A stretch of 31,112 nt of DNA from a virus: positions 1-31,112 of the IMG/VR virus record IMGVR_UViG_3300018081_000010; one strand, given 5' to 3'. How positions within the stretch are numbered: the first letter of the stretch is position 1; each line of letters begins with the position of its first letter. Under the pieces are notes generated by a model. It was not told where the DNA came from and ran no database searches. It saw only the letters and a list, made by a program, of their open reading frames with translations. Made by a program: the position numbers and the translations under genes. Shown here one piece after another: positions 2,282-24,343 of the stretch.

Positions 2282-2805
2282 ATCTCTCCGAATATCAAGG
2301 GCTATTCAACAGGGGGGAGCCAACTCGGTATCCCGAGGAGTGTCAACGCATCGCACGGATAGCCAAAGAAGTGGGGCTATTCATCTCAAGTGGACAAGCC
2401 GAAGAAATTTGGCAATGGCACAGCGACAATTCTGGTGCTGGTTGGTTGGGGATTGCCGGGGAAGCTGATGAGGAAATCCAAGCGGTTCTATTAACTTATT
2501 GTGTGTTCTACTCTCGCATGAAAGGCCTTACAGGAGAAAATATTCACACCGCTGGAAATCCCGGACCTCCCGGACCTCCGCCCGGCTATCGTCTGTTGGA
2601 GTCCGATGATTACGTGAGTCCGGGCGATTTGTGGTTGCGACCTTATGACAATATTTGGGTCGAGTCTGGAACTGCGCATTGGGGATACGGGCGTTGCCCG
2701 ATTTCTGGTGAAATGGGATATAGGCGACGCCCTGCCCCGGGGCAAAGCTATGCGAGGAATATTAAACTTGACAAATCGCGGCTAGGGGCTACCATAAAGG
2801 TATGA
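2278..2805 (+). CDS. Hypothetical phage protein, 175 aa, TTG start
   Basis: The TTG at 2278 is supported by a strong Shine-Dalgarno, GGAGGG, at 2265-2270 with a 7-base gap. It overlaps the preceding TGA. The N-terminal ~80 residues look helical and globular. A short proline/glycine linker, GNPGPPGPPPG, follows. The C-terminal part (YRLLESDDYVSPGDLWLRP onward, with several Trp residues and a closing YRRRPA) resembles a short Trp-rich domain seen in many phage hypothetical proteins. No catalytic motif is evident and the function is unknown. A promoter-like site (P3) lies inside its last 40 bases, and its stop overlaps the start of the next small ORF. Confidence 0.6.
   Translation: MNLSEYQGLFNRGEPTRYPEECQRIARIAKEVGLFISSGQAEEIWQWHSDNSGAGWLGIAGEADEEIQAVLLTYCVFYSRMKGLTGENIHTAGNPGPPGPPPGYRLLESDDYVSPGDLWLRPYDNIWVESGTAHWGYGRCPISGEMGYRRRPAPGQSYARNIKLDKSRLGATIKV
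2768..2796 (+). promoter_or_regulatory. Promoter-like site P3
   Basis: TTGACA (2768-2773) and ACCATA (2791-2796) have a 17-base spacer. An ATG follows at 2802, exactly 34 bases after the first T, the same geometry as P1, P2, P5 and P7. The site lies within the 3' end of the upstream gene. Confidence 0.5.
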
Positions 2806-2882
2806 TTGATGTTTTTATGGTTACTTTCGCTGTAGCCGTCGTGGTGTTGTTCATTTTCGTCGCCGCCAAGGCGGTGCGATAG
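2802..2882 (+). CDS. 26-aa single-pass membrane peptide
   Basis: ATG at 2802 to TAG at 2880-2882 encodes 26 residues. After a short start (MIDV) comes one hydrophobic stretch, FMVTFAVAVVVLFIFVAA, that would span a membrane once, and then a basic tail (KAVR). The ORF has AAAGG just upstream and sits precisely at the expected transcription start of P3, which is why I consider it real despite its size. Small single-pass peptides in phages can act as holin-like, superinfection-exclusion or anti-host factors. None can be assigned here. Confidence 0.5.
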   Translation: MIDVFMVTFAVAVVVLFIFVAAKAVR

Positions 2883-2886
2883 CGTC

Positions 2887-2915
2887 TTGACTTTCGGGCC
2901 ATTCTGCGGACCTTT
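2887..2915 (+). promoter_or_regulatory. Promoter-like site P4 of the RNA locus
   Basis: TTGACT (2887-2892) is followed by GGACCTTT (2908-2915), with the same spacing as at 9836, 16002 and 25832. There is no ATG at the +34 position. Transcription would start near 2921, about 12 bases before the tRNA-like element, so this looks like the promoter for the RNA locus. Confidence 0.6.
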
Positions 2916-2933
2916 GTAGCAGTTCTTTGATAT

Positions 2934-3005
2934 GGCGGGTTGGAGTAATAGTAGCTCGTTTGGTTCATCCAGAAGGAGTGGGTTCAAATCCTGCACTCGC
3001 CGCCA
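2934..3005 (+). tRNA. tRNA-Met(CAT)-like RNA with a shortened anticodon loop
   Basis: A 72-nt cloverleaf can be drawn by eye. The acceptor is GGCGGGT/ACTCGCC (7 bp, one G-U), followed by discriminator G and an encoded CCA (3003-3005). The D arm is GAGT/GCTC with loop AATAGTA. The anticodon stem is TTTGG/CCAGA, the variable loop AGGA, and the T arm GTGGG/CCTGC with the canonical loop TTCAAAT. It resembles Met tRNAs, but the anticodon loop is TTCAT, only 5 nt instead of 7. The D loop also lacks the invariant GG (one G only). Acceptor position 1-72 is a G-C pair, unlike bacterial initiators. It may be a decaying tRNA, a tRNA with an unusual fold, or a tRNA mimic. It lies 12 nt downstream of the predicted start of P4. 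Confidence 0.6.
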
Positions 3006-3147
3006 ACTTCTCCCGCCGAAACGGGGGAACAAGTCGCGTGGTAAATCCTGTTCTACGCTAGGCATAGCTAGGGCATGGTGGTAAATCGCGGCCGCTGAGG
3101 CTTGCGGTGCGTTAGCGGGTCGCGCCCGGCACCGAACCCAGCAAATC

Positions 3148-3224
3148 ACTCGGGTAGTTTAAGACTAAAACACCGGTTTTGACACCGGAATTGCCGACGA
3201 ATAAAAACGAATCGGCCCCGAGTC
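3148..3224 (+). ncRNA. Cloverleaf-like RNA (Gln-like anticodon arm)
   Basis: All four stems are perfectly paired: acceptor ACTCGGG/CCCGAGT (7 bp), D GTTT/AAAC (4 bp), anticodon CCGGT/ACCGG (5 bp) and T GCCGA/TCGGC (5 bp). The D and anticodon arms resemble Gln(TTG) tRNAs. The loops are wrong, however. The D loop AAGACTA lacks GG. The anticodon loop TTTGAC has 6 nt. The T loop is 14 nt (CGAATAAAAACGAA) and lacks TTC. No CCA is encoded after position 3224. The stems argue for selection on the fold, while the loops argue against ordinary tRNA function. A decayed tRNA with a T-loop insertion is the main alternative. Confidence 0.5.
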
Positions 3225-3285
3225 AAAATTTCCAGTCGGAGTCCCCCAAACTGGTCGGCGCGAAGCGAAAATCGCTAATCCCGAC

Positions 3286-3361
3286 GAGCGGAATTCAGCG
3301 GGGCAAGACTGTGTAAACGAAGTCTCCGGGATTACCCGGGGACCAACCAAACATTCCGCTC
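3286..3361 (+). ncRNA. Structured RNA element closed by a perfect 9-bp stem
   Basis: GAGCGGAAT (3286-3294) is the exact reverse complement of ATTCCGCTC (3353-3361), enclosing 58 bases. Inside are hairpins AGACT/AGTCT and, directly abutting, CCGGG/CCCGG with loop ATTA. The overall length of 76 nt equals that of a tRNA, but no proper D or T arm can be drawn. It ends 12 bases before the CapD-like gene, followed by TCTTTT. It could be a third degenerate cloverleaf, a terminator-like structure or a 5' UTR element of that gene. Confidence 0.4.
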
Positions 3362-3373
3362 TCTTTTGCCACG

Positions 3374-4378
3374 ATGATTGATAAAGATTACCGCCGCCTG
3401 CTATGCCGGCCCGAGCATATCTTTGACGAGGCTGCTATCGACAAAGAATTGCTCGGGAAAAAAATCCTGATAACCGGGGCCGGCGGGTCCATCGGCTCTG
3501 CGCTGACTCGGAGGATTTGCCAAGCGAATCCCCTTTTGCTTTATGTTCTCGGACATGGCGAGGATTCTATTTTTCAGTTGCAACAACGGCTTCTAGATTC
3601 ATCGTGTATTCGACCGATTATCGCGGATGCGTATTCCCACGAGGTTTTCACTTTGCTCGAAACGGGCAACATCGACCTCGTTTTCCACACGGCCGCCCAC
3701 AAACATGTCGGGCTTATGGAATCAAATCCGCGCTCGGCCTTCGCGAATAATACCCAAGCGACGATTTGGCTTGCGCGCAAATGCGAAAAACATAACGTCC
3801 GGTTTGTCTATCTATCCACCGACAAAGCGGTAAAGCCCACCACCGTCATGGGCGCGAGCAAGAAGCTCGCCGAGGCCTGGGTCGATGCGAACTGTTCTAA
3901 CGCAGTGACGATTCGCCTCGGCAACGTGCTGGGGTCCGCCGGTTCGCTGGTGGAAATCATTGAGAGACGGCGAGAGACCGGGCACAGCTTTAATCTGGCT
4001 CACCGTGACATGGCTCGTCATTTCGTCACGGTCAAGGAAGCGGTAGGGCTGATTCTTACCTCCGGCATCGGTTTGCCCGGGAAATATACCCTTTACATGG
4101 GGTTACCGCGATATATTGAGGCGATTGTGAGACAAATTGCTCCGAGCATGGGAATAACCATATCAAATAAGGTCGGCAAAGAAAAGCTAGTCGAAGATTT
4201 GCGAGAGGATGACGAGGGATATTATGATAATCTGGATTCGCCCATTGTCAAACTGACCCGGGACGTGAAACCCGAGCTAGTCAGCGCGGTCCTCGAAATC
4301 ATCGAAGACCACGCGAATTCTGGCATCGAAACTGAGTCCCTTGGGCGGCTTATGGTGAACATAGCCAGGAAAATATAG
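3374..4378 (+). CDS. CapD/FlaA1-type nucleotide-sugar 4,6-dehydratase, 334 aa
   Basis: This is an extended short-chain dehydrogenase/reductase of the polysaccharide biosynthesis (CapD/FlaA1/PseB) family. The members act on UDP-sugars such as UDP-GlcNAc, giving 4-keto-6-deoxy intermediates. Visible motifs are the Rossmann GAGGSIGS (35-42), AAHKHVGLME (107-116), STDKAV (148-153) and MGASK (159-163). In the last, Met replaces the usual catalytic Tyr, as is normal for this family. The length matches the short soluble members without membrane helices. It is followed immediately by a putative glycosyltransferase (stop and start overlap as TAGTG) and, further on, by a fucose synthase. This makes a phage-encoded route to activated deoxysugars. 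The exact substrate and stereochemistry cannot be read from the sequence. Confidence 0.8.
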   Translation: MIDKDYRRLLCRPEHIFDEAAIDKELLGKKILITGAGGSIGSALTRRICQANPLLLYVLGHGEDSIFQLQQRLLDSSCIRPIIADAYSHEVFTLLETGNIDLVFHTAAHKHVGLMESNPRSAFANNTQATIWLARKCEKHNVRFVYLSTDKAVKPTTVMGASKKLAEAWVDANCSNAVTIRLGNVLGSAGSLVEIIERRRETGHSFNLAHRDMARHFVTVKEAVGLILTSGIGLPGKYTLYMGLPRYIEAIVRQIAPSMGITISNKVGKEKLVEDLREDDEGYYDNLDSPIVKLTRDVKPELVSAVLEIIEDHANSGIETESLGRLMVNIARKI

Positions 4379-9835: not shown

Positions 9836-9864
9836 TTGACCGAGACGCTTTTTTGTGGACCTTA
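9836..9864 (+). promoter_or_regulatory. Promoter-like site P5
   Basis: TTGACC (9836-9841) is followed by GGACCTTA (9857-9864). The ATG at 9870 lies exactly 34 bases after the first T. The site occupies the only gap between the zinc-ribbon gene and the endonuclease gene. Confidence 0.6.
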
Positions 9865-9869
9865 ACTTG

Positions 9870-10583
9870 ATGCCAGATACGACATATATTTATGCCCTGA
9901 AGGAACTTGCCCACGGCGAGTTTTTTTCGACTCGGATTCGGTATGTCGGGAAATCCAACGACCCTTTTCAGAGGTTCGAGGAGCATCCAAGAACTAGCGA
10001 GAGATGTCACCGGGGATGCTGGATTCGTTCACTGCCCGCGCGGGGCCTATCTTTACAGCTTGAAATCTTGGATGAAGTGCCGGAATCGGAGTGGGAATTT
10101 TGGGAGCGAGAATATATAAAGGTGTTTCGGGCGATTGGATTTAATTTAGTAAATACGACTGAGGGAGGAGAGGGTATTGGCAAGGTTTCGGATGAAACTC
10201 GTAAAAAGATGAGCGTCGCGAAATCCGGCTCTAGACACCCTAATTTTGGAAGACCTCTATCTTCCGGGATTCGAGAAAAAATCAGTCGTGCGAATTCGGG
10301 AAAGAAACGCACTGCGGAGTCCTGCGAAAGGATTCGCCTAAGCCAACTCGGAAGGATTCTCTCCCCCGAGATGAAAGAAAAGATTGGACTTTCGCTCCGA
10401 GGAAAAGCCCACAAAGATAATACTTCTGGGTTTGTCGGGGTATTTTTTGCGAGACATCGTAATGGTTGGATGGCGTCAATCGGTGTTAAGGGCGTCGAGA
10501 TAAGGCTCGGATGCTTCCCCCGAATCGAAGACGCAGTAGCCGCGAGAAAAATGGCGGAACAAAAGTATTATGGCAGCGATTGA
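9870..10583 (+). CDS. GIY-YIG homing endonuclease with NUMOD3 and AP2 domains, 237 aa
   Basis: Residues 6-40 hold the GIY-YIG core: YIYAL, then RYVGKSNDPFQRF with the catalytic Arg. Residues ~105-175 hold NUMOD3-type repeats (SDETRKKMSVAKSG, GIREKISRANSGKK, SPEMKEKIGLSLRGK), which bind DNA. Residues ~182-235 form an AP2 domain with NTSGFVGVF, a conserved Trp, RLGCF and EDAVAARKMAEQKYYG. This domain order is known from mobile phage endonucleases, which cut an uninfected allele and copy themselves in. A GTG at 9855 lies upstream in frame, but the ATG at 9870 matches the P5 spacing. The 3' end overlaps the portal start by 14 bases. It is free-standing, with no intron detected around it. Confidence 0.85.
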   Translation: MPDTTYIYALKELAHGEFFSTRIRYVGKSNDPFQRFEEHPRTSERCHRGCWIRSLPARGLSLQLEILDEVPESEWEFWEREYIKVFRAIGFNLVNTTEGGEGIGKVSDETRKKMSVAKSGSRHPNFGRPLSSGIREKISRANSGKKRTAESCERIRLSQLGRILSPEMKEKIGLSLRGKAHKDNTSGFVGVFFARHRNGWMASIGVKGVEIRLGCFPRIEDAVAARKMAEQKYYGSD

Positions 10584-14710: not shown

Positions 14711-15552
14711 GTGAGAATAGGAACAACGTTTTGGTCGAGAACCGTTCTGTGATGATTTGTCTACCCTGGTATAAACAAACAAATCCCCGAACCGCTTTTG
14801 CACTTTTGTCTATGTATGATAGGCGGAGGATGGCTATTAGTCTCGATTTCGGCGATGCATGCGTTTTTCATAGCCGCAACAAATTGGCGGACCAGTTTTT
14901 GAAATCTAAACAAGAATGGTCGCTCTGGCTCGATGACGATAACCTCCCGCCGTTCGGCAGTGCTTCTCTATATAACTCGTTCACGGGATTTAATCTCCCG
15001 GAACATTTTGCGGGACTGCACGGCATAGACCAGCTGCTTTCACGGGGGAAAACGTTTATCGGCGGCGTATATCGAGGTCGTTGGCCACATCACTCTAATC
15101 CGGTTTTTGCGGAGGGGCCCCGCCTTAACAAATGGGTGTCGGAAGGTCCTAAAGACGAGGTAAGAGCAACGGAGTGGATTGGTTATGGTTTTGTTCTCGT
15201 GCACAGGTCAGTTTTTTTGGATATAGAGAGGGCCTTCCCTCATTTAGCCCGAAAGCAAGATGGAACAGGGGGGCAGTGGTTTACCCCCAGTCAGCATGAT
15301 TTAACTAACGCCGCAGAGGAAATCATTAGCTCAATAAATTCAGACTGCCCGATGGATTCCGAAGAAATTTCCAAAAAACTAGAGGGGGCGATTCGTCTAT
15401 CCAGGAGAAATTCCGGGCTAGGAACCGGTGAAGACGTTCAGATGGCGCGACGCGCGGCTCAAGCAGGGCACAACTGCCATGTCGATTTATCTTTACATGT
15501 CGGGCATTTTGGCGAACTGTGTTACCTTCCAGGAAAAACAAAAATTCAATGA
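14707..15552 (+). CDS. GT-A/GT2-like glycosyltransferase, 281 aa
   Basis: An upstream in-frame start at 14596 lies inside the preceding gene. The ATG at 14707 overlaps the previous stop (ATGA) and gives a good N-terminus, MSENRNNVLVENRSVMICLP. The core has the feature WSLWLDDDNLPPF (71-83), where the Asp triplet suits the DxD metal and nucleotide-sugar site. The C-terminal GEDVQMARRAAQAG and LHVGHFG match the acid/base and metal-ligand (His) regions of GT-A enzymes. No membrane segment is seen. It probably glycosylates a virion protein or a host surface glycan. It sits between scaffold and major capsid genes, an unusual place. Confidence 0.65.
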   Translation: MSENRNNVLVENRSVMICLPWYKQTNPRTAFALLSMYDRRRMAISLDFGDACVFHSRNKLADQFLKSKQEWSLWLDDDNLPPFGSASLYNSFTGFNLPEHFAGLHGIDQLLSRGKTFIGGVYRGRWPHHSNPVFAEGPRLNKWVSEGPKDEVRATEWIGYGFVLVHRSVFLDIERAFPHLARKQDGTGGQWFTPSQHDLTNAAEEIISSINSDCPMDSEEISKKLEGAIRLSRRNSGLGTGEDVQMARRAAQAGHNCHVDLSLHVGHFGELCYLPGKTKIQ

Positions 15553-15992
15553 AAAAGTGTTGGGACTGCGGGCAAGAAAAAGATTCCTGCGATTTTAACT
15601 TGGACAGGAGTCGATGGGACGGATTATATCCCCGATGTCGCAAATGCGCCAGTGAATATCATAGGGGGTATCGCGTAAGAAACCTGCCCCGACTGAAGTT
15701 GCGAGGACGAGATAAAAACCTCCGGACTAAATATGGATTCGGGCAAGACACTTTTAATCAGATGCTAGCGGCTCAATCGGGGGTTTGTGCATGTTGTAAA
15801 TCCGCCCCGGCGACAGACGTAGACCATTGTCACAAAACAGGGAGGGTCCGCGACCTGCTTTGTAATGCCTGCAACGCGGGAATCGGACAATTGCGAGATT
15901 CTCCGGCGCGATGCGAGAGTGCCGCGCGGTATTTGAGGAAATTTTCATCGGAATCGGAGGTTCTTCCGTTTGTAGGAAACTCGGGCCTGTAA
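15549..15992 (+). CDS. Endonuclease VII-like HNH protein, 147 aa
   Basis: The ATG overlaps the preceding stop (ATGA). The N-terminal part has CWDCGQEK and CRKC (C4/C7, C30/C33), a zinc ribbon. The C-terminal part has the endonuclease VII/HNH core: CACC (80-83), VDHCHKTGRVRDLLC (91-105) and CNACNAG (105-111), with Asp92/His93/His95 as likely catalytic residues and Cys as zinc ligands. Known relatives include T4 gp49, which resolves branched DNA before packaging, and free-standing homing endonucleases. Either role is possible. Its location just upstream of the capsid promoter, in a cassette, is compatible with a mobile gene. Confidence 0.75.
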   Translation: MKKCWDCGQEKDSCDFNLDRSRWDGLYPRCRKCASEYHRGYRVRNLPRLKLRGRDKNLRTKYGFGQDTFNQMLAAQSGVCACCKSAPATDVDHCHKTGRVRDLLCNACNAGIGQLRDSPARCESAARYLRKFSSESEVLPFVGNSGL

Positions 15993-17778: not shown

Positions 17779-18305
17779 AGTATTTTTCTCTAGTGCTTTT
17801 GTTCCTTACTGGTTGCATAAGTCCGCTCGAACCGGGCCACTCATCTTATACGTCGACAGACGGCACGCTGGTAGTTGCTAAACAATCACAAAACCCGAAA
17901 ACTGAGACGAAACAGGATTATGTCCGAACACATGAGACGAAAGACGGAAAAACCACCGAGGAAGTCCATACCGTCATCGGAGCCGCGCAGAAAGACACGG
18001 CGCGCGAAATCGGAGCGAAGCTCGCGTCTATGCGCTGGATGCAGGTTCTAGGCGTGTTGGTGTTCCTGTTCGGCGCGGCCAGCTTTGTCTATCCTCCGTT
18101 AAAACTTGTCGTGGGGTCAGTCACTACCAGCGCGGTCGCGTGTGCTTCCGGCCTCGCGCTAATGTTTTTGCCCGTCATCGTCGTAGGAAACGAAGCCTTG
18201 TTGCTGGCCCTCTCTATTGGAGCCGTCGCGCTCGTGGGCGTTTGGTTTTTCGTGCATCGGCACGCAACCCTGCACGGGAAATTGAAAGCACTTTCAGAGA
18301 AATAA
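17775..18305 (+). CDS. Lipoprotein with C-terminal membrane segments, 176 aa
   Basis: The N-terminus MKYFSLVLLFLTGC is a lipoprotein signal with lipobox LTGC, so Cys14 should be lipidated. After a soluble, charged, Thr-rich region, the second half has about three hydrophobic stretches: MQVLGVLVFLFGAASF, SAVACASGLALMFLPVIVV and ALLLALSIGAVALVGVWFFV. A lipid anchor plus membrane helices is uncommon in phage. It could be a lysis-related factor partnered with the upstream holin-like protein, or a superinfection-exclusion protein. The function is uncertain. Confidence 0.5.
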   Translation: MKYFSLVLLFLTGCISPLEPGHSSYTSTDGTLVVAKQSQNPKTETKQDYVRTHETKDGKTTEEVHTVIGAAQKDTAREIGAKLASMRWMQVLGVLVFLFGAASFVYPPLKLVVGSVTTSAVACASGLALMFLPVIVVGNEALLLALSIGAVALVGVWFFVHRHATLHGKLKALSEK

Positions 18306-18307
18306 TT

Positions 18308-19453
18308 ATGTCTTGCTCAAGCTGTGGATGTGTAAATTGCGGTTCTGGATTATGTCAAGATTGCATCAACGGAAATCGCGGCACTGGTAATTGCAACCCC
18401 TGTAATACTTGCCCGCCGAATACCGTAGACTGTGAGACGTTGCCGAGCGCGTTGGACAATTTCACGCGTCAATTTTTTGGTAGCATTGAACGAACTGTAA
18501 TAGATGGAGAAATTCGATGGGTGCTACCGTGCGACCTAGACGTGGGGTTACCCGGCAATCCGCGCCTCGACGGAGAGGGGCTCGCCTGCTATTTCCTACG
18601 GCTGTTTAACGACGGAATCATCGGCCAAATGGGCCCAATTGGTCCCATCGGCCCGGCTGGCACGAATGGACGAAACGCCTATGCGGTCATCACCTCAGCG
18701 TTTAACGCTCCATCCGACGATAATCCGACTTCACAGTTTACAATCATTCCGACTCCGGTTGTTTCAGTAGGCCAAACCATTTTTATCACGAGCCTCGGTT
18801 GGGTTCGCATCACGGATATTCTCGATAACACGACCGTTTTTACGACGCTCATCGAACTAATTCCGTCTTCGGCCGCTGTTGTCGTTCCCGGGTCTCTGGC
18901 ACTTCCTACGGGCCCTCGCGGGCTTTCCATCATAGGACCGCAAGGAGACCAAGGGCTCAAGGGAGACAAGGGAGACCAAGGCGTCACCGGTGATACCGGG
19001 GCGGCCGGACCAACCGGAGCAACGGGGCCTGCCGGCGCGGCCGCGACGAATTCTAACGGAACGGAAACCGGCGGTTCTACGGACTACACGATGACGAACG
19101 TCTACGCCAAGGTTGACTTCGGCACGAATGACCTAGACATTACTCTACCGACTGCTGGCACCTATCTTGTGATGTTTCAATTCGGGGGCCGTAACGATTC
19201 CGCCGCGACGCGCGAGTGGGATTTCAAGATACACAACTTGACCCAAGCCGCAGACATCCCGAACACAGAGCAATTCAACGTGGTTAATACAGATTCTTCC
19301 GCCACACGGTTCCAATATTTTTACGTGTTCGGGATTATCACAACCGCAGGAGCAAATGAGATAATTCAGCTTTTTGCGAAATCCTCCGCAAATACGGCCA
19401 CACAGCTTATTGATTTTGCCACAGCAAAGGGAGTGTTTATCAAGCTCGCATGA
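18308..19453 (+). CDS. Collagen-like fibre with Cys-rich N-terminus, 381 aa
   Basis: The start at 18308 is preferred over an in-frame upstream start at 18140, which lies inside the lipoprotein gene. Residues 1-42 hold ten Cys, dense enough for disulfides or metal binding. Two Gly-X-Y stretches follow: one short around 103-119 (GIIGQMGPIGPIGPAG) and a longer one at ~201-243 (GPQGDQGLKGDKGDQGV and on). They are separated by a ~75-residue beta-rich domain. The C-terminal ~130 residues form a compact beta domain (YTMTNVYAKVDFGTNDLDIT) similar in layout to trimeric C1q/TNF-like heads. This is a virion fibre or spike candidate. Collagen repeats imply trimer formation. Confidence 0.7.
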   Translation: MSCSSCGCVNCGSGLCQDCINGNRGTGNCNPCNTCPPNTVDCETLPSALDNFTRQFFGSIERTVIDGEIRWVLPCDLDVGLPGNPRLDGEGLACYFLRLFNDGIIGQMGPIGPIGPAGTNGRNAYAVITSAFNAPSDDNPTSQFTIIPTPVVSVGQTIFITSLGWVRITDILDNTTVFTTLIELIPSSAAVVVPGSLALPTGPRGLSIIGPQGDQGLKGDKGDQGVTGDTGAAGPTGATGPAGAAATNSNGTETGGSTDYTMTNVYAKVDFGTNDLDITLPTAGTYLVMFQFGGRNDSAATREWDFKIHNLTQAADIPNTEQFNVVNTDSSATRFQYFYVFGIITTAGANEIIQLFAKSSANTATQLIDFATAKGVFIKLA

Positions 19454-19668
19454 CGCCGTATCCAATCATCCGCGATGTCAATGGCGAACTCGCTGAACAC
19501 TGCTGCCCGCCGAAGGCCGGTATCAAAGAGGCGCACAGGATTCGGCACGAGCTTCCGCCATTTAGGTTGCTAAACAATGACCCGCAGATTTTGCAGGACG
19601 AATTCGGCGCTCCGATTAATGACGAGCAAACGAACGGACTAATTTATGACGACCTGAGAAATTTCTAG
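19450..19668 (+). CDS. Hypothetical small protein, 72 aa
   Basis: It overlaps the collagen-like gene by four bases (ATGA) and ends one base before the next collagen-like gene. It contains CCPPKAG and an acidic C-terminus. No family is recognised; possibly a small chaperone or component of the fibre unit. Confidence 0.5.
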
Positions 19669-19669
19669 C

Positions 19670-20284
19670 ATGGCAAAAATTTCTGAATACCCCGAGTCTA
19701 CCCAACCGCACCCCGATGGATTTTTATTCATCGCGGAGTTGCAGGAGGATGGCTCTTTCGTTACCAAGAAGGTTCGGCCGGATGTTGTCGGCGCAGTTGG
19801 GCCGGTTGGGCCACAGGGCATTCAAGGTCCGACGGGCCCGGCGGGAGATACTCCGGGCCCGCAGGGTCCGCAGGGTCCGGCGGGCTCTGACGGAGCCCCG
19901 GGAGCTACTGGCGCAACCGGGGCCACGGGAGCAACTGGCGCGACCGGGCCGGCGGGCAGCGATGCACACTCAGATATTGCTTACGCAGGCGCGGTTCAAC
20001 TTGATTTTAGCCTTGCTCAAAACTTCCACACTATCGAGTTAGCAGGAGATATTACTTTCACTTCCACCTGGCTCGCGTCTATGCGGGAGAAATTCGTTCG
20101 TCTTATCGCCGACGGCTCTGACCGCACGGTGACTATGCCCGCGACTTGGAATCCCGTCGGGGACACGATTGATTCGGGAACGAATACTTTTGTTGTTCCC
20201 GCAGGAACACAAGGAATTATGTCAGCGAAATCATTCGATACAACTGACGCAGACGTGGTAGTGGCCGCCGGAGTATTCGTCTAA
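19670..20284 (+). CDS. Collagen-like tail fibre protein, 204 aa
   Basis: After an N-terminal ~40-residue head, residues ~41-98 are Gly-X-Y repeats, including [16 protein letters not shown] and a run of GAT triplets. The C-terminal ~100 residues are a beta-rich head ([20 protein letters not shown]). The design repeats that of the gene at 18308 and suggests a trimeric fibre. The stop overlaps the next gene's start (TAATG). Confidence 0.65.
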
Positions 20285-22348: not shown

Positions 22349-24343
22349 ATGTCCAGCCCTCAGATAAATCAAGTTCCGTTCCGCCGACCCGACGGAGATA
22401 TTTCATTCTTACCCGGGATGAATAGCAACGCGCACCCGACGCAATTGCAGCCCGGGCAATACGCGCGTTCCATGAACACCGTCAATCGTGGCGGAATCGT
22501 GCAATGCCGACCCGGTCGACGATGCAAGTTCGTTTGTCCTCCCGGAAATTTCCAGGGCAGCGAATGGTTTATTCCGAAGCAGGGCACGCGAGTAATTCTG
22601 TTCGCGGTGGAAGGACTCGTTTACATTTCAGAGTTTCCATTCACGAATTACCGGCAGATTCCCGGGATTTCGTTCCTGCCGCACGCAAGGCAGATTTTTT
22701 TCCAGCAAGTTGAGCAATCGGTAGTCATCAATGACGATGGGTCGCTAACACTGATTCCTCCGCGAAACCTGATGGTGATTCAGGACGGGGGGTTCACCCC
22801 TCCGGCAGTTTTTGATGGGACGACTGCGGAACATCAACGGGGAGCAAACAAGATTCCTCTCGGGGGGCCGATGGAATGGGTAGGAGACCGGCTTTGGGTC
22901 GCGCGGGATTCTTTTTTGTTCGCTTCCGACATTGCGAATCCCCTCTCGTTTACAGAGGCGATTTATTTCGCGACCGTCCGGGCTTTTACTCTTCCAGGAA
23001 CCATCACGGCATTGCACCGGACGACGAACCCCACATCGCCGCAATTACTGGCCTACACAGACCACACCACCACACTTTTTCAAGCCTCAATACGAGACCG
23101 GTCCCAGTGGCCTACGACCCCGAATTTTCAACAGGTCGTGTTGACGAGCATCGGATGCACCTCGAACCGGTCTGTTCAAGCCCACTACGGAATGCTCTGG
23201 TGGTGGTCTGAGCATGGGCTAGTCTCCTTTGACGCCGCCGGTTTGAATTTCATCACGGCTGCGTTGCCATATCGAGATGTAGAGATGAACGACAGCAAGG
23301 GCCAGCTTTCTGAGGATTGCGGCGGCATTGCGGTTGTTTCGGTGGAAAATTACCTTTTAGTCAGTGTTCCGCACTCGGATTTATATAATAAGCATACCTG
23401 GGTCCTCGATACCGGAGTCTTTCAAACGTTGAACCAAATGGCCCCGCCGGTGTGGAACAGCTTTTGGACCGGCACACGGCCGATTACGTGGCTCGTCGGT
23501 CAGGTGAACGATACCAACGCGTTCTTTGCCTTTTCACAAGATTATGACGGTCTAGTTAGGTTGTGGGAAGAATTCACGCCCGACCGGCTCGATGACGGAT
23601 GTCCGATTACATGGTATCTGGAAACCCGGGGATATTTCAACCAAGACCCCACCGTCAAAAAGCAATTCCGCTTCGCGAAAATTTACATGAGCGAATTGCT
23701 CGGCGTCATCGACGTAGCCGTGTTCTGGGCCGGGGCGCAACGTGGAAAATACAAACGAATTCTGACCAAGCGCATCAATGCCACTGCGGGGATGCTGCGC
23801 GCACTTGATATCGTTACTGCGGAGGACATTCTTTACTCGCTGAAAAAGCAGTCGCGAGAATTGCGGACTCAAGACGCAAAAGAAATCTGGACGAACGAAA
23901 AGCAGACTTCCTGTGGGGTCGAAGACCCGCTTGCCGAATTCAAGGATGAATCCTTTCAGCTTTTGATTGTGGTCTCCGGACCCGGCGCGATTAATTCGGT
24001 GTTGACCGAGACTGACCCCGAAGAAGGACAGAAGCTCGGGGGCGCGTGCGAGGAAGACGAAGCGGAAAACAAGCTAGTTCGATTCGATGGTGCGGGAGAA
24101 TCCTCCAAAGAATTTCTTGAGGCGGCAGACCGACTCGCGACCGACCTTGAAATTTTCCGGTCGAATCAGACGGCGACGTTAATGCAGGATGGATTTATTG
24201 AAACCGGCGTCGGGGAAGGCGAGAGCACGATTTCACAAGCGGCTGCGGACAAAATCGCGGAATGTATTGCGATTCGCAAAGCCGCGAAGCATCTTGAGGA
24301 AGAACTTCCGGCAATTGTTAGCCTGCCGGACTCGGCATTATGA
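22349..24343 (+). CDS. Putative tail tube/nozzle protein, 664 aa
   Basis: The ATG directly follows the adaptor stop. The first ~420 residues look like a beta-propeller (repeated W and VSF-type strands; GGPMEWVGDRLWVARDSFLF, YLLVSVPHSDLYNKHTWVLD). Beta-propeller or barrel platforms are typical of podovirus nozzle proteins. The C-terminal quarter is mixed helical and acidic (LGGACEEDEAENKLVRFDGA). Consistent with the tail nozzle that closes the connector and ejects DNA. The function is inferred from context and fold guess. Confidence 0.55.
   Translation: MSSPQINQVPFRRPDGDISFLPGMNSNAHPTQLQPGQYARSMNTVNRGGIVQCRPGRRCKFVCPPGNFQGSEWFIPKQGTRVILFAVEGLVYISEFPFTNYRQIPGISFLPHARQIFFQQVEQSVVINDDGSLTLIPPRNLMVIQDGGFTPPAVFDGTTAEHQRGANKIPLGGPMEWVGDRLWVARDSFLFASDIANPLSFTEAIYFATVRAFTLPGTITALHRTTNPTSPQLLAYTDHTTTLFQASIRDRSQWPTTPNFQQVVLTSIGCTSNRSVQAHYGMLWWWSEHGLVSFDAAGLNFITAALPYRDVEMNDSKGQLSEDCGGIAVVSVENYLLVSVPHSDLYNKHTWVLDTGVFQTLNQMAPPVWNSFWTGTRPITWLVGQVNDTNAFFAFSQDYDGLVRLWEEFTPDRLDDGCPITWYLETRGYFNQDPTVKKQFRFAKIYMSELLGVIDVAVFWAGAQRGKYKRILTKRINATAGMLRALDIVTAEDILYSLKKQSRELRTQDAKEIWTNEKQTSCGVEDPLAEFKDESFQLLIVVSGPGAINSVLTETDPEEGQKLGGACEEDEAENKLVRFDGAGESSKEFLEAADRLATDLEIFRSNQTATLMQDGFIETGVGEGESTISQAAADKIAECIAIRKAAKHLEEELPAIVSLPDSAL

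What the first reader, a model, noticed from the sequence alone, without database searches (positions are those of the whole stretch)
2934..3224. Two cloverleaf RNAs with paired stems but altered invariant loops and short anticodon loops
Seen: stems are well paired in both elements (perfect in the second, a few G-U in the first). But the D loops lack GG, anticodon loops are 5 and 6 nt instead of 7, and the second has a 14-nt T loop and no CCA. In the first, the T loop and an encoded CCA are canonical. Either the tRNAs are decaying, or these are tRNA mimics that are not meant to decode. Decoys for anticodon nucleases or aminoacylation/processing substrates are possible; that is speculation. A promoter of the phage motif family lies just upstream.
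Basis: partly seen in the sequence, partly recalled or inferred. Interest (0 to 1): 0.7.

Follow-up and report, generated by a model that had tools for sequence, protein, structure and literature searches.

The report
Non-decoding tRNA-derived RNAs in phages
This uncultured phage carries two RNAs built from transfer RNAs whose code-reading loops are the wrong size to read codons; the second is kept almost letter for letter in a relative, so such phages seem to keep tRNA-shaped RNAs for a job other than translation.

Summary
El1 (2934-3005) is a tRNA by Rfam (45.3 bits) with a 5-nt anticodon loop, no GG in the D loop, normal T loop and encoded CCA. El2 (3148-3227) is a second cloverleaf: 21/21 pairs, 6-nt anticodon loop, 14-nt T loop, no CCA. 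The interpretation splits. El1 belongs to the phage group's Met(CAU) tRNA family (E 1.4e-11) minus four loop bases; Met tRNAs with normal anticodon loops stand at the corresponding place in four relatives, so decay, assembly error and mimicry cannot be separated. El2 is not decaying: outside the anticodon arm it is 96% identical in a relative whose flanking genes have saturated synonymous sites, and there the anticodon arm is a longer hairpin with a 3-nt loop. Ten of 31 tRNA-shaped RNAs parsed from this group have anticodon loops of 3-8 nt other than 7, while stems covary (107 double changes). Best reading: processed, non-decoding tRNA-fold RNAs, probably acting on host enzymes that bind tRNA bodies or tails; that last step is inference. 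Another conserved structured RNA lies between them (3006-3143).

The parts
2887..2920 (+). conserved upstream block TTGACTTTCGGGCCATTCTGCGGACCTTTGTAGC, promoter-like
   Evidence: shared with L001 5180-5213; TTGACA-headed blocks at a similar distance upstream of the tRNA in L011, L012, L015; activity not tested
2934..3005 (+). el1: Met(CAU)-lineage tRNA-like RNA with 5-nt anticodon loop TTCAT (2964-2968), D loop without GG, G73 and encoded CCA
   Evidence: Rfam tRNA 45.3 bits; Met-family model R3 53.4 bits, E 1.4e-11, deletions only in D loop (1), anticodon loop (2) and variable loop (1)
3006..3143 (+). conserved structured RNA of about 140 nt between the two cloverleaves (three helices, two GGTAAATC boxes)
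   Evidence: long identical blocks with L001 5303-5434; both sequences fold alike, with a double change in the first pair of the GUCGCG/CGCGGC helix; no Rfam match
3148..3227 (+). el2: tRNA-derived cloverleaf, 6-nt anticodon loop TTTGAC (3178-3183), 14-nt T loop (3198-3211), no CCA here; the relative encodes G-CCA
   Evidence: Rfam tRNA 31.3 bits; model R1 built without el2 finds it, E 4.3e-6; 54 of 56 compared positions outside the anticodon arm identical to L001 5472-5556
3228..3372 (+). rest of the ORF-free stretch, possibly further structured RNA up to the next gene
   Evidence: 7-bp GCGGAAT/ATTCCGC closing helix read by eye; folding z -2.0 only; weak

Best explanation
The two elements are tRNA-derived small RNAs in an ORF-free stretch of this phage's virion-gene region. 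Shown by sequence: both keep the four tRNA stems; neither has a 7-nt anticodon loop; el2 is under strong purifying selection everywhere except the anticodon arm; and the same phage group carries several other tRNA-shaped RNAs, of Glu-like and other type, whose anticodon loops range from 4 to 8 nt and whose D-loop GG and T-loop TTC have usually been lost together. Inferred: the region is transcribed as one unit and cut by the host's tRNA maturation enzymes, which would explain why many of these RNAs end in N-CCA (or a near form) followed by ATTT. Inferred and less certain: the mature RNAs act by their tRNA body and 3' tail, without decoding, by occupying host enzymes that act on tRNA bodies or ends, for example immune nucleases or tail-modifying toxins. 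El2 is the clear case. El1 may be a recent recruit to this class or simply a Met tRNA that has just lost function. I put about 0.8 on 'el2 is a selected, non-decoding tRNA-derived RNA' and about 0.35 on the decoy or competitor step; the confidence below is for the statement as a whole.
For: Two cloverleaves against none in shuffles. El2 versus L001: 54/56 identical outside the anticodon arm, while four-fold sites of seven neighbouring genes are 30-63% identical, 46% in the gene next door. The L001 anticodon arm is a 7-bp hairpin with loop ATA; one stem pair changes on both sides (UA to CG) and one GC to GU. tRNA ancestry both ways: the model built from el2 alone finds a phage tRNA-Thr (35.5 bits) and the mimic L043:3056 (35.2 bits) as its best outside matches; the Glu-type model built without el2 finds el2 (28.7 bits). 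Other odd loops: L043 TTGCT, TATTGAAT and GCCAA, G043/G048 ATTGGT, G053 GCGT, G020 TCGCTATA, G052 GATGT. On 19 aligned members 94.2% of pair cells are paired, against 66% in shuffles, with 107 double changes against 36. D-loop GG and T-loop TTC are lost together (13 of 15 RNAs without GG also lack TTC, 15 of 16 with GG have it, p 7e-6, not corrected for kinship). RNA ligase genes are commoner in tRNA-bearing members (7 of 15 against 1 of 14, p 0.035, uncorrected), a weak hint of tRNA damage as a pressure. TGA is a stop in 14 of 29 genes, so el1 is not a UGA reader.
Against: No transcript, processing or binding data exist. El2 is seen in only two phage lineages of 53 records. El1's shortened loop is seen in one assembly only. 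Loop sequences differ so much that no common target can be read from them. Several group members carry only ordinary tRNAs, or none. The alignment used for pair counts was fitted to the structure and includes ordinary tRNAs, and my parses maximise pairing, so those figures lean towards the structure.
Confidence: 0.45

Rival explanations
1. Decaying tRNA genes: the loops were hit by deletions after the phage stopped needing the tRNAs. (Plausible for el1, about even odds; very unlikely for el2.)
For: El1 differs in length from the group's Met tRNAs by deletions in loops only, and Met tRNAs with normal anticodon loops stand at the corresponding place in relatives. Window el2 lacks the CCA that the relative encodes.
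Against: El2 outside the anticodon arm is far more conserved than neutral sites. Random substitution of a perfect cloverleaf leaves all 21 pairs intact in under 0.1% of trials at 12 changes. Odd loops with paired stems recur in other phages.
Confidence: 0.2
2. Processing signals: the cloverleaves serve mainly as cut sites for RNase P and 3' processing enzymes, so that neighbouring RNAs and mRNAs get defined ends, as tRNA punctuation does in mitochondria.
For: Tandem arrangement with short spacers (L043 3056-3127 and 3134-3207), N-CCA followed by ATTT at many elements, a conserved RNA sandwiched between el1 and el2.
Against: El2's D and T loops are kept almost letter for letter, more than a cut site would need; many of these RNAs lack the D/T elbow that RNase P normally reads (the RNase P point is general knowledge).
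Confidence: 0.2
3. Aminoacyl donors outside translation, like the Staphylococcus tRNA-Gly variant that feeds cell-wall synthesis and has altered D and T loops.
For: Intact acceptor ends and encoded CCA in several; altered D and T loops reminiscent of that case (PMC8007984).
Against: Glu- and Gln-type synthetases read the anticodon (general knowledge), which is unrecognisable here; no amino-acid transferase family was recognised among the window genes scanned (one GNAT-like acetyltransferase lies 23 kb away).
Confidence: 0.08
4. Functional decoding tRNAs with unusual loops, including frame or stop readers.
For: ARAGORN can read el1 as UCA in a 7-nt loop on a 4-bp stem; 8-nt loops occur in L043 and G020.
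Against: TGA is an ordinary stop here; loops of 3, 4, 5 and 6 nt have no consistent anticodon; L001 el2 has a 3-nt loop.
Confidence: 0.07

Closest known systems
Phage-encoded tRNAs with anticodon-loop changes that evade host anticodon nucleases (van den Berg et al. 2023, PMC10264068)
   Same: Phage tRNAs whose anticodon loops depart from the host's, linked to tRNA-targeting defence.
   Different: In the passages read those are mutations in tRNAs meant to keep translating; here loop length itself changes and decoding appears lost.
Bacteriophage T4 RNAC and RNAD (PMC3014915, PMC9697503)
   Same: Small phage RNAs of unknown function transcribed from a tRNA region; a parallel for the RNA at 3006-3143.
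   Different: No sequence comparison was made; el1 and el2 are themselves tRNA cloverleaves.
Staphylococcus aureus tRNA-Gly variant for cell-wall synthesis (PMC8007984)
   Same: tRNA body diverted from translation, with variant D and T loops.
   Different: That one is charged by its synthetase; here the anticodon loops are resized and charging is untested.
RF00005 tRNA
   Same: Four-stem cloverleaf; both elements exceed the Rfam cut-off.
   Different: Anticodon loops of 5 and 6 nt, no GG in the D loops, el2 T loop of 14 nt.

Membership tests
tRNA (RF00005) | score over the curated cut-off | tested here: met
   el1 45.3 bits, el2 31.3 bits in a focused search, cut-off 29; L001's el2 is not listed
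tRNA (RF00005) | 7-nt anticodon loop usable for decoding | tested here: not met
   5 and 6 nt in the window, 3 nt in L001 el2
tRNA (RF00005) | D-loop GG with T-loop TTC (elbow) | tested here: not met
   el1 lacks GG only; el2 lacks both
tRNA (RF00005) | 3' CCA encoded or added, and aminoacylation | tested here: inconclusive
   CCA encoded in el1 and L001 el2, not in window el2; addition and charging not testable here
tRNA-Sec | extended acceptor/T stack and long variable arm | tested here: not met
   7 + 5 bp, 4-nt variable loop
UGA-reading tRNA in a recoded phage | UGA not used as a stop | tested here: not met
   TGA ends 14 of 29 genes
GOLLD / ROOL large phage RNAs near tRNAs | match to the Rfam family models | tested here: not met
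   only RF00005 plausible in the window; same in L001, L012, L043
tmRNA | ARAGORN or Rfam tmRNA hit | tested here: not met
   no tmRNA
Decoy for a host tRNA-acting enzyme | binds or is cut/modified by the enzyme and protects translation | not testable with these tools
   needs biochemistry or infection assays

The most novel reading that the evidence does not exclude
This phage group maintains a set of processed, CCA-ended tRNA-fold RNAs that have given up decoding and act as decoys or competitors for host enzymes that attack tRNA bodies and tails, a counter-defence based on tRNA mimicry.
Probability: 0.3. Interest if true: 0.85.

Novelty: new variant of a known kind. Interest (0 to 1): 0.62.

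Why it matters
Why phages carry tRNA genes is a long-standing question, usually answered by codon supply or by nuclease-resistant replacements. RNAs that keep the tRNA body under selection while giving up the anticodon fit neither answer. They would be a clean test case for tRNA-directed defence and counter-defence, and they show that standard gene finders miss or mislabel a class of phage RNAs (ARAGORN calls el1 SeC and misses el2).

Tried and rejected
Nucleotide similarity of 2700-3500 to 50,697 phage records: none. Pattern scan for the paired GGTAAATC boxes in viral contigs: beyond the known relatives only chance matches in unrelated sequence. Pattern for the el2 5' half: only the two known relative records. 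Model R2 over 53 records: el2 only in the window and the L001/L002 pair. Scan of genome contigs with the terminase: one contig, binned in a Candidatus Peribacteraceae MAG (L043), which proved rich in mimics but does not prove a host. SeC or UGA reading of el1: rejected on structure and on TGA stop usage. The possibility that el2 is only a chance four-way junction: rejected by conservation and by tRNA models. A minus-strand near-match to the el2 model at 22893-22975 (19.4 bits) was taken as chance. Literature searches found no description of non-decoding tRNA-like RNAs in phages, but the library lacks most subscription papers.

Full report
What was checked. The window is one 31,112-base virus record with a terminase, a portal-like gene, a conserved virion gene that I took for the major capsid gene, and sugar-nucleotide genes (the portal and capsid labels are my reading, PHROGs gave no name). 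The two elements lie in an ORF-free stretch of about 490 bases between small ORFs and an NAD-dependent epimerase gene at 3374. A relaxed cloverleaf scan found exactly these two in the stretch and none in 20 dinucleotide shuffles. In a focused Rfam search el2 itself passes the tRNA cut-off at 31.3 bits.

Relatives. Terminase, capsid and portal scans gave relatives with genomes of roughly 65-76 kb, some only as fragments, and one contig binned in a Candidatus Peribacteraceae genome (L043). The closest with the region, L001 and L002, come from different IMG records and are alike over it. Four relatives at 65-66% terminase identity (L011, L012, L015, L043) have a Met(CAU) tRNA with a normal CTCATAA loop and CCA about 3-4 kb upstream of the terminase, as el1 is in the window. 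L001 has a Lys-anticodon tRNA with a Glu-like body there.

El1. A model built from seven Met tRNAs of the group, without el1, finds it at 53.4 bits, E 1.4e-11; the differences in length are one base in the D loop, two in the anticodon loop (after CAU) and one in the variable loop. So el1 descends from this phage tRNA. Whether it has just died, is an assembly error, or now works as a mimic cannot be told from a single sequence. The UCA/SeC reading is unlikely: 14 of 29 genes end in TGA.

El2. Window and L001 share 54 of 56 compared positions outside the anticodon arm, plus one 2-base indel in the T loop; four-fold degenerate sites in seven shared genes are only 30-63% identical, 46% in the neighbouring epimerase. 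The anticodon arm differs: window CCGGT-TTTGAC-ACCGG, L001 a 7-bp hairpin with loop ATA; one shared pair changes on both sides and one GC to GU, one pair is lost. Two sequences give too little covariation for a test by themselves. L001's copy ends G-CCA-ATTT. Ancestry: the el2-only model picks out a phage tRNA-Thr and the mimic L043:3056 as best outside matches (E about 7e-6), and the Glu-type model built without el2 picks out el2. From memory, the el2 anticodon arm resembles E. coli tRNA-Gln(UUG) and the Glu-type bodies resemble E. coli tRNA-Glu; these are leads, not tests.

The wider class. Parsing the tRNA-like RNAs of the group gave ordinary tRNAs and odd ones: L043 with loops TTGCT, TATTGAAT and GCCAA, G043 and G048 ATTGGT, G053 GCGT, G020 TCGCTATA, G052 GATGT, plus el1, el2 and the L001 copy of el2. 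In the table of 31 RNAs used, ten have loops other than 7 nt. On 19 RNAs aligned to the Glu-type model 94.2% of pair cells are paired and 107 cells change on both sides, against 66% and 36 in shuffles; sliding partners by one column drops pairing to about half. The alignment was fitted to the structure and includes ordinary tRNAs and the sequences the model was made from, so this shows a maintained fold in the set, not proof for each member. D-loop GG and T-loop TTC tend to be lost together, as expected if the elbow contact is given up as a unit; kinship was not corrected for.

Other RNAs. Between el1 and el2, 3006-3143 is conserved in L001 with a common three-helix fold and a double change in one pair. 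The L011, L012, L015 and L043 stretches hold further conserved structured RNAs without Rfam match. Many elements end in CCA followed by ATTT, which suggests tRNA-type 3' processing; not tested.

How it most likely works. Shown: tRNA-derived, non-standard loops, selection on el2. Inferred: transcription as a unit and excision by host tRNA enzymes. Inferred and less certain: action on host enzymes by body and tail. Bacterial immunity offers suitable targets: anticodon nucleases such as PrrC, VapC and PARIS, and Cas12a3, which grips the acceptor stem, T arm and CCA tail and still cleaves tRNAs with loops removed (PMC12851939, passages read). A PF09414 RNA ligase occurs in 7 of 15 tRNA-bearing records of the group and 1 of 14 others, weakly consistent with tRNA damage during infection; records are incomplete and the test is uncorrected.

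Comparison with the known. Phage tRNAs with anticodon-loop mutations that evade nucleases are described (PMC10264068, passages read), as are T4's two small RNAs of unknown role from its tRNA region (PMC3014915; PMC9697503) and a bacterial tRNA diverted to cell-wall synthesis (PMC8007984). I found no report of phage RNAs that keep a tRNA body under selection while losing the anticodon loop, in an open-access library only. I therefore rate it a new variant of a known kind.

Verdict. Observation confirmed. Mimicry supported for el2, undecided for el1, mechanism open.

Noticed in passing
window 3006-3143; L001 5303-5434: Conserved structured RNA of about 140 nt with two GGTAAATC boxes and a common three-helix fold; no Rfam family.
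   Followed up: partly
L011 7720-7855, L012 4650-4790, L015 7220-7350, L043 4050-4225: Conserved RNA of about 150 nt containing CGCGGTGAATGG.G.ATAAC, closed by a GCGGGAG/CTCCCGC helix; no Rfam match.
   Followed up: no
L012 4579-4630 and 4870-4925, L015 7519-7571: Mini element of about 54 nt, GCCGGG..CCGAGAGTTCTA..GAAC..CCCGGC, some copies ending in NCCAATTT; looks like an acceptor stem with two arms.
   Followed up: no
L011 7170-7320, L012 4398-4520, L015 6660-6790: Another conserved stretch, GACTGCATGAAGCTGCC..GTTGGCA..GGTCTAAACAGTC, in the same RNA-rich region.
   Followed up: no
L043 (JABFSS010000059.1): A contig of this phage group is binned in a Candidatus Peribacteraceae MAG; either misbinning or a hint about the host.
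   Followed up: no
L012 4241-4316, L015 6507-6582: Met(CAU) tRNAs with normal anticodon loops but without D-loop GG and T-loop TTC.
   Followed up: partly
L145 6242-7126 (G001): RNA ligase (PF09414) gene; matches over cut-off in 8 of 29 group records, mostly tRNA-bearing ones.
   Followed up: partly
window 9855-10583 and 15519-15992: Homing-endonuclease-like gene (NUMOD3) and an endonuclease VII gene among virion genes.
   Followed up: no
window 18140-20284: Genes with collagen-like GPTG/GATG repeats, probably tail or fibre proteins.
   Followed up: no
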